From assembly GCA_001304155.1 (NCBI GenBank), contig LJUX01000018.1:1-49438 (forward strand): 49,438 nucleotides of DNA, read 5' to 3'. The DNA is from a candidate division Zixibacteria bacterium SM23_73_3. GTDB taxonomy: Bacteria > Zixibacteria > MSB-5A5 > SM1-73. Position numbers and translations under genes: made by a program. The notes below the pieces were generated by a model. It worked only from the letters and a program-made list of their open reading frames with translations, searched no databases and was not told where the DNA came from. Of this stretch, positions 6,001-15,526 are shown one piece after another (the stretch's first letter is position 1; every line of letters starts with the position of its first letter).

Positions 6001-6234
6001 TGGAAACATGGGAGTTTCCGCTACAATGGATCATGTGTAAGGGCGGACCTCAGTGTCCGCCCGAACTTCAGGGTGATGGCAGAGCATCGCCCCTACGGCA
6101 ACGGAAAGCTATGAGGGATTTAGTCTTCCGCTTTGAAGACTTAAAGATTCTCGCTACAATTAAAATAAAAAATGTAGGGGTGGACCTAAAGCTTCACCCA
6201 TCCTAAGGGCGAATCTGAAGATTCGCCCCTACAT
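6001..6234. repeat. Array of at least four different short palindromes
   Basis: GGAAACatgggaGTTTCC; GGGCGGACctcagtGTCCGCCC; AGTCTTCcgctttGAAGACT; GGGCGAATCTgAAGATTCGCCCCTACAT. Confidence 0.75.
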
Positions 6235-7834: not shown

Positions 7835-10138
7835 TTACCACCAAGACCACACCTCCACCCTCAGATAACGAACGATCCTTCTGGTCAAAAGAGAGGCCAG
7901 TCTCATCTTACCACAATACACTTTGGCATATCCAGACATGCCCGGCTTTAAAAGATAAGCTTTATTTTCTATTTTGCAAGTAACCGGAAAGATTTTTTTT
8001 GCCACCTCCTCATCAGCCGTTAGCGAGATTTTTGTCACCTTACCCCAAAAGGATAGAAAAGGATAACTTCTAACCTTCAGTTTGGCCCGAAGGCCTTCCC
8101 CCAATACATCTAAATCCTTTTCAGATATATTGATCAAAACCCGCATGGTATCTAAATTGGCGATGCTCAAAAGATTTCCCCCAGAGCTTATGGAGGTAAC
8201 CACACCCTGAATGGGGCTTTTTATCTGGGAGGCGGAGATCTGATCCTCCAAAAACTCAAGCTTTGCATCCAGCTTTCTTATCTCCGCCCTTGCCATGGAA
8301 AGCTCTTCTTCTCTGGCACCATTTTTCATAATTTTAAGCTCATTTTTGGCAATTTTGAGCTGATTTGCCAGCACCGAAACCTCCGTCTGAACTTCTTCCA
8401 GTTCTTGACTGCTGATTAAGTTTTTTTGATGCAGATCGGAAAGTCTGGAAAGCTCTCTTTCTTTGAGCTTGAGCTCACTTTGAATTTGAGCCTCCTTGTC
8501 TTTTGCCTGCTGGATGGCTTCCTTTCTGGCACCTTTTTGAAGCAAGGTATAATATTCTTCTGCCTTTTTTAGGGCCGCTTTTGTCTGGGCTAAATCGGAA
8601 AGATAGGAGGGAGAGGAAAGCTCTGCCACTGTCTCTCCTATTTTCACCTTCTGGCCCTCCTTCACCTTAGTCACCAGGTTTAAACTGGTGTAATCGTCTG
8701 CAAAAAGCCGAAGCAGATTCACCGATTTTTTCTCCTGGCTTCCTCCCTGAAATAACTCGGAGATCACGGTTCCATCCGGAGAGCTTTTCAAGACGAAATA
8801 TTCCAGAGCCTGTATCTCACAGGGGCTGCCTATCTTCAGCTCCAACTTTACTAAAAATAATACAAGCACCAGCGCCACGACTATGGCAGAATAGATTATA
8901 ATCTTTTTGGGAACCAATATCTTCTCCTTTTTTATAAAAAGGAATTGAGATATTCCTGCCAGAGTTACCCTGGCAGGTTGTCTCAAAATAAGAAAAATCA
9001 AAAGCAAAAACAAGATAAATCCGAACCCGCCCAATTGAGAAACTAAAAAGCGCTCCACCTGGATGAAGACGTAGGAGAGGAGTAAAGCCGAATAAAGAAG
9101 AGAAAGAATACCGTACCAGATGTATATTTTTTTTGCCCGGGGGGAGACTTCAATTCTTGAGTCCTTCGGTTTGAGAAATCTTTTCTTTAAAAGTGCGGAG
9201 ATATATCCGAAGGCTTTTTGCCTTAAATTGGGAATCTCCAGATAATCGGTTAAAAGATAGTATCCATCCAACTTTATCAGGGGATTGAAATTGAAAAGAA
9301 CGGTTATTCCGGAGGTGATGACCACTACAAAAAGGAAACTGGAAAGTCCGGTGTCAAGGGCGGTGATCCTCCACAAAATGGTGGCAACTGCCCACACGAA
9401 TATCTGGCAATATGCCCCGGCAAAGGTGACTTGAAGCCTTTTTGATTTCTCCTTGAAAAGATAGGCGTCGCTTACGTTGCAGAAGAAACAGGGCTGGAAA
9501 TAAAGCAAAAGAAAGCCCATCTCATGCACCTCTCCTCCGAAGTATTTACAGGTCAGGGCATGGGCGAACTCGTGCAGGACCACCACCAAAAATATGGCTA
9601 TCCAGATCTTGAAGATGGTGGCGATCTTGAAAATCCCCGAAAAGCTATATCCTAAATCCGCCCAGCTGGAGATGGTGATGGCTGTTGCCAGAAAGATAAT
9701 AAACAAGGAAAAGAACAGAAAGTAGGGGGTAAAAATAAATCTGGTGAACCTTATCATTCTGTTCAGAAGCCGGTCCGGGTCGAATCCTTTCAGCTTTATG
9801 AAAAGGAGCTTTCCCGGAAGGGCCCTTTTCTGATATTGAAGCCGGGCAAGTTCTCTTTCTGAGATCTCGCTCTCTAAGAATCCTAAGCTTTCTAAACGCT
9901 GGATAAATTTTTCCAGAGTATCTAAGGGGAGTCGAATATTGAAATGTGCTTCAAAACTTAAAGCTATCTGTTCAGGCGGGGTTTCTCCGTTAAGCTTCTG
10001 AGTGATGAAATACTCAAATTCTTTGATACGGAAGAACTTTTGGGTGATGGGATCTTTTATCACATAGTAGGTGATCTTCTCAAACTTCTGCTGGCTGATG
10101 ATCAGGTCATCTCGGAATTTTGGATAGCTTTCTTTCAT
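7835..10138 (-). CDS. PqqD-like N-terminus + M50 metalloprotease + HlyD-type membrane-fusion domain fusion protein
   Basis: HEFAH zinc motif, NPLIKLDGYYLL second M50 motif, multiple TM helices, then coiled coil and biotinyl-lipoyl-like HlyD segments (KVKEGQKVKIGETVAEL; IKSPIQGVVTSI). Confidence 0.82.
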   Translation of the reverse strand: MKESYPKFRDDLIISQQKFEKITYYVIKDPITQKFFRIKEFEYFITQKLNGETPPEQIALSFEAHFNIRLPLDTLEKFIQRLESLGFLESEISERELARLQYQKRALPGKLLFIKLKGFDPDRLLNRMIRFTRFIFTPYFLFFSLFIIFLATAITISSWADLGYSFSGIFKIATIFKIWIAIFLVVVLHEFAHALTCKYFGGEVHEMGFLLLYFQPCFFCNVSDAYLFKEKSKRLQVTFAGAYCQIFVWAVATILWRITALDTGLSSFLFVVVITSGITVLFNFNPLIKLDGYYLLTDYLEIPNLRQKAFGYISALLKKRFLKPKDSRIEVSPRAKKIYIWYGILSLLYSALLLSYVFIQVERFLVSQLGGFGFILFLLLIFLILRQPARVTLAGISQFLFIKKEKILVPKKIIIYSAIVVALVLVLFLVKLELKIGSPCEIQALEYFVLKSSPDGTVISELFQGGSQEKKSVNLLRLFADDYTSLNLVTKVKEGQKVKIGETVAELSSPSYLSDLAQTKAALKKAEEYYTLLQKGARKEAIQQAKDKEAQIQSELKLKERELSRLSDLHQKNLISSQELEEVQTEVSVLANQLKIAKNELKIMKNGAREEELSMARAEIRKLDAKLEFLEDQISASQIKSPIQGVVTSISSGGNLLSIANLDTMRVLINISEKDLDVLGEGLRAKLKVRSYPFLSFWGKVTKISLTADEEVAKKIFPVTCKIENKAYLLKPGMSGYAKVYCGKMRLASLLTRRIVRYLRVEVWSWW

Positions 10139-10288
10139 AAAGCTTCACTTATTTGACTGAATGAAAAACCAGTGGGAAATCGCCTCTTCGCCCCTAATTT
10201 AGCATGTTAAAACAAAGCAGGCAAGGCAAATCTTAGAGAGTGGTTTCTCTTCCGAGCACATCGTTTCCTAAATAATGTTACAACAATT

Positions 10289-10403
10289 TGTCATGGCGGG
10301 TCCCGATGAAACCGGGACGAAGTAATCTCATTTAATTCCGACTACTTAGAGATTGTTTCGCCGAGTTCCCTCTCTGACGCTCGGGACAAGCCCCGCGATG
10401 ACA
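10289..10403. repeat. Palindromic intergenic element, TGTCATGGCG...CGCGATGACA family, copy 1
   Basis: Imperfect terminal inverted repeats TGTCATGGCGgg...GAAGTAATCTC / GAGATTGTTTC...CCCCGCGATGACA. Confidence 0.75.
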
Positions 10404-10414
10404 GTTGCTTTTTG

Positions 10415-10545
10415 TGTCATGGCGAACGAAGCGAAGCAATCTTTTAGTAGGGGCGATTCATGAATCACCCCTACATAGTCGAGTTCCATTGCTTGCCCCC
10501 TCACTTCGTTCGGGGCTTCAGTTCGGCATGAATCTCGCCATGATA
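10415..10545. repeat. Palindromic intergenic element, copy 2, interrupted by another palindrome
   Basis: TGTCATGGCGAACGAAGCGAAGCAATCT at left and CGCCATGATA at right; interrupted by GTAGGGGCGATTCATGAATCACCCCTAC at 10447-10474. Confidence 0.7.
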
Positions 10546-10770
10546 GATTAAAATATAATGTTATTCTGGCGATGTTTCATTTGTGGGACCTTCATTTATC
10601 AAACCCGCCAAAGGCGGGGTCGGATGAATCCGACTACCTACTCTCATTTCGTTTTTTAAGAGGAGGTATGCAGGATTCAGGGTGCAACTGAATGCCAAGT
10701 AAAAACTGGTCTAAAGGACAATTTTCGTCCTGTATTGCCAAAAAAAGTGTAAAAATATGCAATTTTTCTC

Positions 10771-10798
10771 TTGACAAGCAGGAGATATGTTGTATATT
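10771..10798 (+). promoter_or_regulatory. Putative sigma-70 promoter for the 1442-aa secreted protein gene
   Basis: TTGACA (10771-10776), 16-nt spacer, TATATT (10793-10798). Confidence 0.6.
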
Positions 10799-10858
10799 AT
10801 ATTCGAAAAGAGCCTATGTAGCAAAGTAATTGTAAAGGTTTTAGGTTTACCCCTTCAT

Positions 10859-10918
10859 AAAAAGACAGGCTGAGCAGAAATTTGTGAATTTCTGGAAAGA
10901 ATGAGTCTGTCTCTTTTT
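10859..10918 (+). promoter_or_regulatory. Structured leader / attenuator-like hairpin
   Basis: AAAAAGACAG...CAGAAATTtgtgAATTTCTG...CTGTCTcTTTTT: two nested stems ending in a T-tract. Confidence 0.5.
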
Positions 10919-11129
10919 ACATATTCCTTTCCTGCTCTACCTTAAGTTGTTGAAATCCACATTGCAGAGGATTTATTAAACTGAAAACTTTTAACAAAAA
11001 TACCGAAAGGAGTTTCTATCGAGTATAAGTTTTGAACAATTGCTATCTAAGGCTCTAAGGCTCTTTTATAGAGGGGGAGTTTGAAGTGATAAAAGATAGC
11101 AGCTATGTTTTTGCATAGGAGGATTTGAA

Positions 11130-14100
11130 ATGAAAAGTAAAACCAAGCTTTTAATCATCTTAGCCATTGCCGTGATGCTTGTGTGGGGAAGCTCTTATCT
11201 GTTCCTGCCAGACACCGGTGCACAGAAATCTGCGGATCAGACAACGGCTTCGCGGGGTGCTTATCCTTATTCTACCGTGGCGGCAAAACCGGACAAAGTT
11301 GAAGGCTATCAGCCTCCGCGCACTGTTCGCTACGGTATAGAGAAACGGGTTCTGCAGAAGCGAGAAGGTGGCGAAGACTGTGCTTCGGCAACCCCCATCA
11401 CCAGCCTCCCTTCCTATACCACCGGTTATACCTGCGACAACGTCAATGACTACGACGAGGTCTGTCCTTATAGCGGCAGCACTGCTAAAGACGTAGTTTA
11501 CTCTTATGCGCCGGGCGCAGATGAGACGGTGAATATTGATTTGGGTGGTTCCTATTATGACACCAAGGTGTACGTATATGAGGACAACTGTGTTTCTCCT
11601 TACTACGCCTGCAACGATGATTATTACCCGGACTATACCTCCGCCATAATGGGATTAGATATCTACGCCGGTCATACTTACTACATCGTTGTGGACGGTT
11701 ACGGCAGTTCCTGCGGTGATTACGTTCTTAGCGTTGAGAGCGTCGAACCTTGCGACGTTGTGTGCCCAGGGGAAGGCATCCCCGAGGATGAACCAGTTTG
11801 CACGGATAACTGGGAGGACATATGGAACGGTGGATGCAATTCGGACCCAAATGTGTTTGAAGACGTCAATTGCGATGACATAATCTGCGGAACCTCCGGG
11901 ACTTATGACTACTATGGATCTAACTACAGGGATACCGATTGGTTCAGGGTCACGCTGACGGATCCAGCTACCCTCACTTGGAAGGTAGTGGCTGAGTTCC
12001 CGTTGTTGATCTTCGTCATAGAGGAGAGCGATTGTGCGGCTCCTATTATTCTCGGCTCTGCCACCGCCGATATGTGCGACACCGCTACGTTGGCCTTCGA
12101 AGTGCCAGCCGGAGTTTACTGGCTCTGGGTTGGTCCATCAGTATTTGAGGGAGTTCCCTGTGGGAAGGAGTATGTGGGTATAGTAGGATGTGAAGTCGCC
12201 GAAACTGGCGCCTGCTGTTATGACCTTGATCCTTACACCTGTACCATGGAGACGCCGGAAGATTGCGCCGCCATGCCCGATCATACCTTCTTAGGTTTGG
12301 GCACAAATTGCGGTCCTCCCAACCCCTGCCTGCCCGGTCCGGATAATGACGACTGCGAGGATGCTGTGCCCGTTACTCCTGGAGTGCCAGTGTACGGTAC
12401 AAACATTGGTGCCACGATCGATTGTCCGGGCGTGTTGGATTGGAATGCAGTGTGGTACACATTTGAGTTGCCTTATGATTGCAACGACCTCTTCATCGAC
12501 TTCTGCCCCACGGACGGCTATATATACACGGTTGGTGTTGTCCTGTATGACGAGTGTCCCCCGGACTGTCCCAACTATATTCTTCGCACCGGCTACCAAT
12601 GGGTGACCTGTACCAGCGGCTGGGATAACCCGCAGATATGGTGGAATAGTCTGCCAGGCGGGACCTACTGGTTCCCAGCTTACGTGGAGGATGAAAGTGC
12701 TAACCCCATGGACTTCGGGTTTGAAATTACCGTTGAGGAATGCCCTGGACCTCCGCCCAATGACGACTGTGTGAATGCCGAAGCAGTGGGTGACGTAGTA
12801 GACCTTGCCTTCAACACCGATGCCGCTACTAACGATGGTGATGGGACTTGTATGTCTTCACCCAACATCTGGTACTGCTATACTGCCACTTGCACCGGCG
12901 ATGCCACGGTCAGCCTGTGTGGTTCTGACTATGACACCAAACTGGCGGTTTATGATGGCTGCACTTGCGATCCGTTAGGCACTGAGATTGAATGCAATGA
13001 CGACTACTGTGGTCTGCAGTCGCAGATCACCTTTTTGGCAGAGGAGGGTCATGAATACCTAGTCGAGGTGGGTGGTTACAGCTCCAATACCGGTGATGGC
13101 ATATTGAACATCTATTGCGTGGGTGCCGACCAAGGCGCCTGCTGCAATGACTTGGAGCCATATGACTGCCAGGTATTGTCGGAAGCAGAATGCAACGTTC
13201 TGCCTGATCACACCTTCTTAGGGGTCGGCACAGATTGCGATCCCAACCCCTGCGTCCCTGGTAACACCTGCGACCTTCCCATAGAAGTCGAACTGCCGTT
13301 GGATCTGCCCTACATGGATCGGGATCAGTATACCTGCGGCAGGGGCGATAACTACGACGCAACCTGCCTGGGCTACTACGATGGCGGCGAAGACATTATC
13401 TACGAGTTGAACGTTACCGAGGCTGTCTCCGTGATGATAACTTTTGATCCGAAAGGCACCACCTGGAACGGAATCGCTCTGGACGATGCATGCCCGCTGG
13501 ATCCGTCAACTTGCCTTTACACGTATACCCAATCTGGCAGTTCGGTCCACAGCTTTGAGTATGACTTCGGCGTGGGCACTTACTACATTCAGATTGATAC
13601 CTGGCCCAGCCCGGATTGTATACCGGATTTCGATCTGACCATCGACCCGCTTGGACCGGAGATCGAGGTGACCCCAGCCAGCTTCGAAGAGGTGCTTAAT
13701 CCAGATCCCCCCAACAACACCGCCGATGAGACCATGAACATAACTAACACCGGATACGAGGATCTCAATTACGATATAACCGAGGATCCGGAAGTTGCCT
13801 GGCTGAGCTGTTCACCCACCTCCGGCACGGTGTTACCCGGTTTGACCGATCCTGTGACCGTCTCTTTTGACGCATCCGGGATGGGCGTGGGCGATTACTA
13901 CACCGATCTGGTCGTGACCAGCAACGCCCTGACAGACCCCGTAGTCACAGTTCCGGTTCATCTGGTGGTGGAGCTACCTCCGGATATCGATGTGGATCCC
14001 TCAATTTCGATGGGAGTCCTCCCCGGATGCAGTATGCCGAAGGGCTTCAGAATTGACAACTTAGGAGAAGGAGAGCTGAGGTATGAGATCTCGGTTGAAC

Positions 14101-15458
14101 AGACTGCTCCTCCACTTGGGGCACCAGGCCCGAACAATATCCACCAAGCCTTGGAGGCTATTCGGAAGGCGGGGAGAACGAACCCCGACCTTGCTCCAAA
14201 GGAAGCCTACAAGATCATCGGCGCTAAGAGGTTGACAGCAGAGCATATCAGCACCGGAGTCTCGGAGGGACTGCTACTCTCTGCTGGCGCTGAGCCGCAG
14301 GCAGACATCCTTCTGGTGGACGACGATGGTGGACTTCCCGGCGGCAGCTACTATGATATCGAAGACATATACATGAATGCTCTGGACGCCGGCGGTTATA
14401 TCTACGATTACTATGTTGTGGACTGGACCAATCCTAACTCCCCTGGCCCTGATATCAGCATCCTGGAGTTATACAACTGCGTGATCTGGTTCTGTGGAGA
14501 GACCTGGGGTTACTACACCCCAGACGACACCTTCATCCCCACCGACGAAGCAAACGTGGCGGCCTATCTGGATGGTGGTGGCAATTTCTTCCTGTCTGCA
14601 CAGGATTACCTCTGGGATGTGTATCCATCTGCGGGATCCTTCTCTCCGGGTCAATTCCCTTACGACTATCTGCATCTGGCTTCCGTATCACAGGATGTGA
14701 TCAACGATCCGTATACCTGTGCCGGTCTTCCGGGATCAGTTGCCGAGGGCATGAGTTTCCAGACCCTGAGATTCACGGATAACCCCGACGTTCCCTTGTG
14801 GACTGACTACCTATATACCCAGTCTGCAGCCGCAGTGGATGTGTTCGACGCCCAGGGAGGAGTCTCAGCCATACAGTACGACGCAGGCAACTACAAGGTG
14901 ATCTTTACCACAACTCCCTTCCCGGGTCTGGTTGACGCCTCACCCAGCACCAGGGCTGAGCTGATGGCCAGCATCGTAGATTGGTTCGGGTGCAGCGTTC
15001 CTGCTTGCCCGTTTATAGTTACTCCGGATGAGGGAACAATCCCACCAGACAGCTTCTTCGATGTAGTTCTCACCTTTGACGGAGAAGCGTTTGAGGAGTG
15101 CGTGGATGACATCATGACCTGTTATCTGGTGATCAGCTCCAACGATCCGATTGACCCTGTGGTATCGGTTCAAGTCGATATGTGGTCTGGCAGAGGAGAT
15201 GTGTTTTACCCACCCGATCCTTGTGTGCTCGACTTAGGAGACGTGCTGTTTTTGATCAACTATGTGTTGAAGGACGGACCTGCTCCTGATCCTCTCTGCA
15301 TGGGTGACTGCGATCCCTCTCATGACGGGATGATAGATTTAGCAGACGTGGTGTATCTGATACAATACCTGTATGAGGGTGGTATGCCACCTGTGGCAGC
15401 ACCTGAGACTGGTCAACCTTCCACCATCAAGCAACCAGCACCAATGGAACGCAAATAA
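11130..15458 (+). CDS. Large secreted Cys-rich multidomain protein: pre-peptidase-C-like domains, duplicated GACC..PDHTFLG..PC modules, HYDIN/BACON-like Ig domains, VDDDGG-type domain, dockerin-like C-terminus
   Basis: Signal peptide; repeats at ~12207-12330 and ~13134-13254; Ig-like IEVTPASFEEVLNPDPPNNTADETMNITNTGYEDLNYDI...; C-terminal LDLGDVLFLINYVL...GDCDPSHDGMIDLADVVYLIQYLYEGG. Confidence 0.88.
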   Translation: MKSKTKLLIILAIAVMLVWGSSYLFLPDTGAQKSADQTTASRGAYPYSTVAAKPDKVEGYQPPRTVRYGIEKRVLQKREGGEDCASATPITSLPSYTTGYTCDNVNDYDEVCPYSGSTAKDVVYSYAPGADETVNIDLGGSYYDTKVYVYEDNCVSPYYACNDDYYPDYTSAIMGLDIYAGHTYYIVVDGYGSSCGDYVLSVESVEPCDVVCPGEGIPEDEPVCTDNWEDIWNGGCNSDPNVFEDVNCDDIICGTSGTYDYYGSNYRDTDWFRVTLTDPATLTWKVVAEFPLLIFVIEESDCAAPIILGSATADMCDTATLAFEVPAGVYWLWVGPSVFEGVPCGKEYVGIVGCEVAETGACCYDLDPYTCTMETPEDCAAMPDHTFLGLGTNCGPPNPCLPGPDNDDCEDAVPVTPGVPVYGTNIGATIDCPGVLDWNAVWYTFELPYDCNDLFIDFCPTDGYIYTVGVVLYDECPPDCPNYILRTGYQWVTCTSGWDNPQIWWNSLPGGTYWFPAYVEDESANPMDFGFEITVEECPGPPPNDDCVNAEAVGDVVDLAFNTDAATNDGDGTCMSSPNIWYCYTATCTGDATVSLCGSDYDTKLAVYDGCTCDPLGTEIECNDDYCGLQSQITFLAEEGHEYLVEVGGYSSNTGDGILNIYCVGADQGACCNDLEPYDCQVLSEAECNVLPDHTFLGVGTDCDPNPCVPGNTCDLPIEVELPLDLPYMDRDQYTCGRGDNYDATCLGYYDGGEDIIYELNVTEAVSVMITFDPKGTTWNGIALDDACPLDPSTCLYTYTQSGSSVHSFEYDFGVGTYYIQIDTWPSPDCIPDFDLTIDPLGPEIEVTPASFEEVLNPDPPNNTADETMNITNTGYEDLNYDITEDPEVAWLSCSPTSGTVLPGLTDPVTVSFDASGMGVGDYYTDLVVTSNALTDPVVTVPVHLVVELPPDIDVDPSISMGVLPGCSMPKGFRIDNLGEGELRYEISVEQTAPPLGAPGPNNIHQALEAIRKAGRTNPDLAPKEAYKIIGAKRLTAEHISTGVSEGLLLSAGAEPQADILLVDDDGGLPGGSYYDIEDIYMNALDAGGYIYDYYVVDWTNPNSPGPDISILELYNCVIWFCGETWGYYTPDDTFIPTDEANVAAYLDGGGNFFLSAQDYLWDVYPSAGSFSPGQFPYDYLHLASVSQDVINDPYTCAGLPGSVAEGMSFQTLRFTDNPDVPLWTDYLYTQSAAAVDVFDAQGGVSAIQYDAGNYKVIFTTTPFPGLVDASPSTRAELMASIVDWFGCSVPACPFIVTPDEGTIPPDSFFDVVLTFDGEAFEECVDDIMTCYLVISSNDPIDPVVSVQVDMWSGRGDVFYPPDPCVLDLGDVLFLINYVLKDGPAPDPLCMGDCDPSHDGMIDLADVVYLIQYLYEGGMPPVAAPETGQPSTIKQPAPMERK

Positions 15459-15491: not shown

Positions 15492-15526
15492 AAGAGCCCC
15501 GCCAAAGGCGGGGCTCTTGTTTTTTA
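15492..15526 (+). terminator. Intrinsic terminator after the 1442-aa gene
   Basis: AAGAGCCCCGCCaaaGGCGGGGCTCTTgTTTTTT. Confidence 0.9.

What the first reader, a model, noticed from the sequence alone, without database searches (positions are those of the whole stretch)
10289..10545. Two adjacent TGTCATGGCG palindromic elements, one interrupted by another repeat family
Both elements start TGTCATGGCG and end in a TCATGACA-like arm. The second contains GTAGGGGCGATTCATGAATCACCCCTAC in its middle. This looks like nested insertion and would make one family younger or mobile after the other. The TGTCATxGCG...AGCAATCT style resembles a palindrome type widespread in environmental bacteria.
Basis: partly seen in the sequence, partly recalled or inferred. 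Interest (0 to 1): 0.6.

Follow-up and report, generated by a model that had tools for sequence, protein, structure and literature searches.

The report
Nested palindromic repeat mosaic, Zixibacteria
Between two genes of an uncultured Zixibacteria-type bacterium sits a mosaic of short DNA palindromes in which one known type of bacterial mini-repeat (GTAG type) is embedded in another (TGTC/CGTC type); the combination arose before this copy did and recurs at about nine other places in the same genome, so it is a new combination of known repeat kinds rather than a fresh insertion.

Summary
Two TGTCATGGCG...TGACA-like inverted repeats occur at 10289-10403 (E1) and 10415-10545 (E2), and E2 holds GTAGGGGCGATTCATGAATCACCCCTAC at 10447-10474. 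They are not two separate elements: both lie inside one frame (10259-10577) whose ends recur at about a dozen loci in this genome. I rebuilt the 1.88 Mb host assembly (Ca. Zixiibacteriota by its relatives). The inner palindrome belongs to an independent GTAG-tagged family with stand-alone copies here and, with covarying stems, in relatives. Its presence is not private to E2: 10 of 14 F1-type cores in this genome carry it at the same site, against 0 of 10 in a family-level and an order-level relative. E1 is an uninterrupted sibling. The join is continuous with the uninterrupted spacer up to and including a resident GTAG; about 20 bp of host are missing behind it and no target-site duplication is seen. 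In six copies a CCGCC hairpin interrupts the GTAG palindrome in turn. GTAG hairpins flank most Y1/RAYT transposase genes of the clade, so RAYT-type capture is plausible but unproven; the mobiliser of the outer frame is unknown. New variant of a known kind (CGTC and GTAG REP superfamilies); moderate interest.

The parts
10259..10288 (+). left end of the outer frame F1 (CATCGTTTCCTAAATAATGTTACAACAATT)
   Evidence: same sequence at 9 other loci of the genome with up to 8 mismatches and in G004, G005
10289..10403 (.). E1: TGTC-tagged inverted repeat without inner GTAG palindrome; its spacer is inverted relative to the frame (CTAC at 10342-10345 = GTAG on the minus strand)
10300..10318 (.). tip hairpin of the left arm of E1 (GTCCCGATGAAACCGGGAC); other copies carry other hairpins at this place
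10415..10545 (.). E2: TGTC-tagged inverted repeat interrupted by the GTAG palindrome
10447..10474 (.). GTAG-tagged palindrome GTAGGGGCGATTCATGAATCACCCCTAC
   Evidence: 14 copies within 3 mismatches in the genome; stem variants in relatives
10495..10516 (.). extra hairpin in the right arm of E2 (GCCCCCTCACTTCGTTCGGGGC), shared with five other F1-type right arms and absent from E1
10546..10577 (+). right end of the outer frame F1
   Evidence: same sequence at 9 other loci with up to 8 mismatches
10604..10637 (-). neighbouring CCCGCCAAAGGCGGG hairpin followed by a second GTAG-tagged palindrome (GTCGGATGAATCCGAC, tag at 10634-10637); outside the F1 frame

Best explanation
A non-coding, non-autonomous palindromic mosaic, probably selfish DNA, in three layers: an outer MITE-like frame (F1), a TGTC/CGTC-class head-to-head REP pair inside it, and, in E2, a GTAG-class palindrome at the centre. 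The GTAG palindrome was captured once by an F1 element in this lineage at a GTAG already present in the spacer, most simply by REP-type (Y1/HUH, RAYT-like) single-strand joining, with loss of about 20 bp behind it. The composite then spread, or was copied by recombination, to about ten loci; some copies later gained a further CCGCC hairpin. E1 and E2 are two cores, one without and one with the palindrome, in a single frame. Shown: anatomy, recurrence, absence of the composite in relatives, continuity of the junction through GTAG. Inferred: single capture, RAYT chemistry, selfish status.
For: Frame ends and cores recur. 10 of 14 F1-type cores here carry the palindrome at the same place, 0 of 10 in G004 and G005 (Fisher p = 0.0006, copies not independent). 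F2 and F3 frames never carry it. Spacer and composite agree through CAATCTCTGAGTAG. GTAG is the tetramer most enriched beside perfect hairpins, 65 sites against 5.1 expected. GTAG hairpins lie beside 20 of 30 Y1 transposase genes read in this genome and its relatives, including both of this genome. TnpAREP enzymes need GTAG and cleave at CT beside the hairpin (PMC8266576). The orthologous site lacks the block in G001 and G002.
Against: No Y1 gene with GTAGGGGC flanks was found in the 82%-complete assembly or in the relatives read. The joint is a replacement, not a clean insertion. Fisher counts treat related copies as independent. The mobiliser of F1 is unknown and no target-site duplication is seen. 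Multiplication by recombination between cores is not excluded; hybrid frames exist (C45, C66, C21:4496).
Confidence: 0.6

Rival explanations
1. The palindrome entered the spacer by microhomology recombination or hairpin template switching (shared GTAG, similar ATTCA.TGA), not by transposition; mosaic cores are shuffled the same way.
For: Replacement of about 20 bp by 24 bp instead of a clean insertion; hybrid frames F1/F3 and F2/F1; weak similarity of spacer to palindrome (16 of 5000 shuffles as good, post hoc; 4% in an ungapped test).
Against: The palindrome family disperses on its own (four perfect stand-alone copies), and GTAG hairpins of the clade are tied to Y1 transposases.
Confidence: 0.3
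2. E2 is a recent, private insertion of a young mobile palindrome into an old repeat.
For: Nested anatomy; stand-alone copies are more alike than the composite ones.
Against: Nine further cores carry it at the same junction; palindromes in composites are about 7% and frame ends about 12-14% from consensus, so the palindrome is not much younger than its hosts.
Confidence: 0.05
3. The block is a functional RNA or regulatory element of the flanking genes.
For: Strong folding; stems of GTAG palindromes kept by paired changes.
Against: Missing at the orthologous site in G001 and G002 while the adjacent promoter-like region is kept; paired changes are also expected from transposase recognition or palindrome repair; no Rfam match.
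Confidence: 0.05

Closest known systems
CGTC-tagged REPs (Di Nocera et al. 2013, PMC3733652), which include rickettsial RPE-4/RPE-6 and neisserial dRS3
   Same: TGTC (a stated variant of CGTC) tag followed by AT-starting stem, mostly head-to-head pairs, intergenic, no transposase gene attached
   Different: Each arm has a longer, exchangeable tip hairpin instead of a 4-5 nt loop; no CCA tail (AATCTC instead); the pairs lie in three kinds of conserved outer frames
GTAG-tagged REPs / REPINs with RAYT (TnpAREP) transposases (PMC3733652, PMC2817692, PMC3116915, PMC8266576)
   Same: GTAG directly beside a perfect hairpin, dispersed, species-specific stems; other GTAG hairpins of this clade flank Y1 genes
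   Different: The tag is paired with CTAC so that the whole 28 bp is one palindrome; no cognate RAYT found; embedded in a TGTC element
REP dimers inside larger palindromes in Anabaena variabilis (GTAG-15) and Halothiobacillus neapolitanus (CGTC-1), PMC3733652
   Same: REP units regularly lying inside a conserved longer inverted repeat
   Different: There one REP type per outer palindrome; here a GTAG palindrome inside a TGTC pair inside an outer frame, with a fourth hairpin in some copies
MITEs of bacteria
   Same: About 150-320 bp, non-coding, imperfect terminal inverted repeats, dispersed
   Different: No target-site duplication and no parent insertion sequence found

Membership tests
GTAG-tagged REP (inner palindrome) | GTAG directly beside a short hairpin, repeated in the genome | tested here: met
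   14 copies within 3 mismatches; GTAG most enriched of 256 tetramers
GTAG-tagged REP (inner palindrome) | GTAG at one end and unpaired | tested here: not met
   GTAG pairs with CTAC at the other end in the stand-alone copies and in E2; so filed as GTAG-like, not as a listed GTAG family
GTAG-tagged REP (inner palindrome) | Cognate RAYT (Y1 transposase) flanked by the same repeat | tested here: inconclusive
   Y1 genes of the clade are flanked by other GTAG hairpins, none by GTAGGGGC; assembly 82% complete
CGTC-tagged REP (E1, E2 arms) | CGTC or TGTC tag beside a stem starting with AT | tested here: met
   TGTC-AT at both ends of E1 and one end of E2
CGTC-tagged REP (E1, E2 arms) | Head-to-head pairs predominate | tested here: met
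   Most cores are inverted pairs
CGTC-tagged REP (E1, E2 arms) | 8-9 bp stem, 4-5 nt loop, CCA-like tail | tested here: not met
   Arms hold long variable hairpins and end in AATCTC/AATCTT; so related in type, not filed as a member
MITE | Terminal inverted repeats | tested here: met
   F1 ends are imperfect inverted repeats
MITE | Target-site duplication | tested here: not met
   No duplication above shuffled flank pairs, 11 elements
MITE | Related autonomous insertion sequence | not tested
   F1 end hits seen all lie at short elements, but no dedicated transposase search was made

The most novel reading that the evidence does not exclude
REP families use resident GTAG tetramers inside other palindromes as docking sites, so that hairpin families nest in ordered layers (frame, TGTC pair, GTAG palindrome, CCGCC hairpin) and the composites then move as new units: a stepwise route by which bacterial palindromic mobile elements grow and diversify.
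Probability: 0.2. Interest if true: 0.55.

Novelty: new variant of a known kind. Interest (0 to 1): 0.38.

Why it matters
It joins REP-like units of the two described superfamilies (CGTC-like and GTAG-like) in one recurrent composite, in a group not named in the 2013 survey text that I read, and it gives ordered layers: an outer frame shared at order level, a GTAG capture seen only in this genome, and a third hairpin only in a subset. If the GTAG join is made by RAYT enzymes it would be natural evidence for a target choice so far studied in vitro.

Tried and rejected
Target-site duplications at frame ends: none above shuffles. General preference of CCGCC hairpins for tips of other hairpins: 5 of 49 against 2.5 by shuffling (maximum 8), not supported. 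F1 spacer as an eroded GTAG palindrome: no intact GTAGTTGGAATTCCAACTAC copy, only weak post hoc similarity. Rfam: nothing at gathering threshold in the window; chance-level STnc550 (E = 0.71) near the block. Exact composite pattern in the GTDB species genomes: none, but the own genome may be hidden there and the pattern is strict. Paper searches with the sequences TGTCATTGCGAG and GTAGGGGC gave no repeat papers. Exact empty site in G001 and G002: flanks align but the middle is too diverged for a base-level join.

Full report
WHAT IS THERE. The window is contig C36 of an assembly of 1,882,756 bp in 90 contigs, 82% complete. A flanking protein has its nearest named relatives in Candidatus Zixiibacteriota genomes, 70-82% identity. 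I fetched every contig as stretches and rebuilt the genome to exactly that length. The block lies in the 991-bp space between two divergent genes: a 767-aa protein with HlyD-like and weak M50-peptidase segments (7835-10138, minus) and a 1442-aa protein with Ig-like domains (11130-15458, plus).

E1 (10289-10403) and E2 (10415-10545) are TGTC...GACA-like inverted repeats; the stretch folds far better than shuffles (z = -5.45). TGTCATGGCG is rare in the genome (3 copies, 2 of them here), but the general form TGTCATTGCGAG...GAAGCAATCTC...GAGATTGCTTCG...CTCGCAATGACA recurs at about 20 loci. Arms have tip hairpins that differ between copies (GTCCATATGGAC, GTCCCGATGAAACCGGGAC, GTCCCGCCTTTGGCGGGATGAC).

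OUTER FRAMES. The sequences outside the TGTC tags are conserved too, in three kinds. F1 has ACATCGTTTCCTAAATAATGTTACAATAATT on one side and, read inwards from the other side, TGGAATGTTTCCAAAATAACATTATATTTTAACC. F2 ends begin CTGTTGAAAAACYC, F3 ends AAACGCRCTAAA. E1 and E2 together lie between one F1 left end (10259-10288) and one F1 right end (10546-10577), so the finding is one element with two cores. Hybrids occur: C45 (F1/F3), C66 (F2/F1), C21:4496 (F1/F3). F1 ends are also found in G004 (same family, other genus) and G005 (same order), but not in the two same-genus genomes.

THE INNER PALINDROME. GTAGGGGCGATTCATGAATCGCCCCTAC occurs 14 times within 3 mismatches in this genome; four copies are perfect and stand alone (C7, C12, C29, C34), and order-level relatives G006-G010 have GTAGGGGCAATTCATGAATTGCCCCTAC. 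Stems vary by paired changes. Among tetramers, GTAG has the highest rate of being followed by a perfect hairpin of 8 bp or more in the table of the commonest ones: 65 of 6,980 sites against 5.1 expected. This is the hallmark of GTAG-tagged REPs. Both Y1 transposase genes of the genome (C22, C73) are flanked by GTAG hairpins of other stems, and 20 of the 30 Y1 loci read in this genome and its relatives have GTAG hairpins beside them. None is flanked by the GTAGGGGCGATTC form.

WHO CARRIES IT. In this genome the palindrome lies in F1-type cores at C21 (three), C33, C36-E2, C50, C66, C71, C84 and C90, at the same place; a truncated copy is at C57:2728. E1, C47, C84:12043 and C45 lack it. In G004 and G005, 10 F1-type elements lack it. 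F2 and F3 cores do not carry it. With up to 3 mismatches the join was found in no relative except one 3-mismatch hit in G069, which has a GTAG palindrome but no TGTC core; an exact-pattern scan of the GTDB species genomes found none, although that collection may leave out the own genome. The simplest history is one capture in this lineage followed by spread or conversion. Palindrome (about 7% from consensus) and frame ends (about 12-14%) are diverged to a similar degree in the composites, so E2 is not a fresh event.

THE JUNCTION. The uninterrupted spacer reads CAATCTCTGAGTAGTTGGAATTC in G005 and CAATCTCTAAGTGGTTGGAATTCAATGAGATTGCTTCG in C47. A composite reads CAATCTCTGAGTAG|GGGCGATTCATTAATCGCCCCTAC (C84); several others continue TTCGTCGAG or a close variant. 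So the host is continuous through its own GTAG, and about 20 bp (TTGGAATTCAATGAGATTGC) are replaced by 24 bp. There is no duplication. A RAYT-type reaction is attractive because TnpAREP enzymes need GTAG, may use it as guide, and cut at CT beside the hairpin (PMC8266576). Replacement by recombination or template switching at the shared GTAG fits as well, and the hybrid frames show that such exchange happens. I therefore claim the anatomy and history with more confidence than the enzyme.

A FURTHER LAYER. In six composites the palindrome is itself interrupted between GATTC (or GATT) and ATGAATC by CCCGCCTCTGGCGGGATGTTCCAC (four) or TCCGCCAAAGGCGGATCCACCTNTGGCGGAC (two). CCCGCCAAAGGCGGG-like hairpins (57 copies within 1 mismatch, 49 outside TGTC elements) and GTGAACCGTATGGTTCAC-like hairpins (10 copies, 8 outside) are dispersed in their own right. 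A general preference for hairpin tips could not be shown.

FUNCTION AT THIS LOCUS. In G002 and G001 the orthologous intergenic region is present, with the stretch before 10231 and the promoter-like TTGACAAG...TATATT stretch alignable, but the repeat block is not there. Whether it was gained here or lost there is not shown by this alone. It speaks against an essential role. No Rfam family matches.

COMPARISON. The arms resemble CGTC-tagged REPs (TGTC variant, head-to-head pairs) but lack the short loop and CCA-like tail; the inner unit is of the GTAG type but with a paired tag. Di Nocera et al. (PMC3733652) already describe REP dimers lying inside larger palindromes, so nesting as such is not new; the recurrent GTAG-in-TGTC composite, its outer frames and its layering are additions.

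Noticed in passing
L144, L145, L242-L269 (Y1 loci of this genome and relatives): Zixibacteria-clade genomes carry up to about 10 Y1/RAYT-like genes each, and 20 of 30 loci read have GTAG hairpins beside the gene, each with its own stem sequence: a little described set of REPtrons.
   Followed up: partly
window 6084-6232: Two longer GTAGGGGC...CCCTTAC/CCCCTAC elements with two hairpins each (REPIN-like) lie in another intergenic stretch.
   Followed up: no
window 15498-15512: A CCCGCCAAAGGCGGG hairpin inside AAGAGC...GCTCTTGTTTTTT directly after the 1442-aa gene looks like an intrinsic terminator made from a dispersed repeat.
   Followed up: no
window 10741-11130: The leader of the 1442-aa gene (TTGACAAG...TATATT, then GCAAAGTAATTGTAAAGGTTTTAGGTTTACCCC) is conserved in both same-genus genomes; no Rfam family matches.
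   Followed up: partly
C10:2517, C21:39252, C40:9415, C71:3714, C73:16939, C81:16365 of the genome: A family ACTTCGTC[CCCGCCNNNGGCGGG]RTGTCGAAGG, again a CCGCC hairpin inside a longer repeat.
   Followed up: no
G005 loci L278, L280, L286: Order-level relative has F1 frames with reduced or missing TGTC cores and a shared 17-bp insert GCGGAAGCATCAAGAGA in the right end.
   Followed up: no
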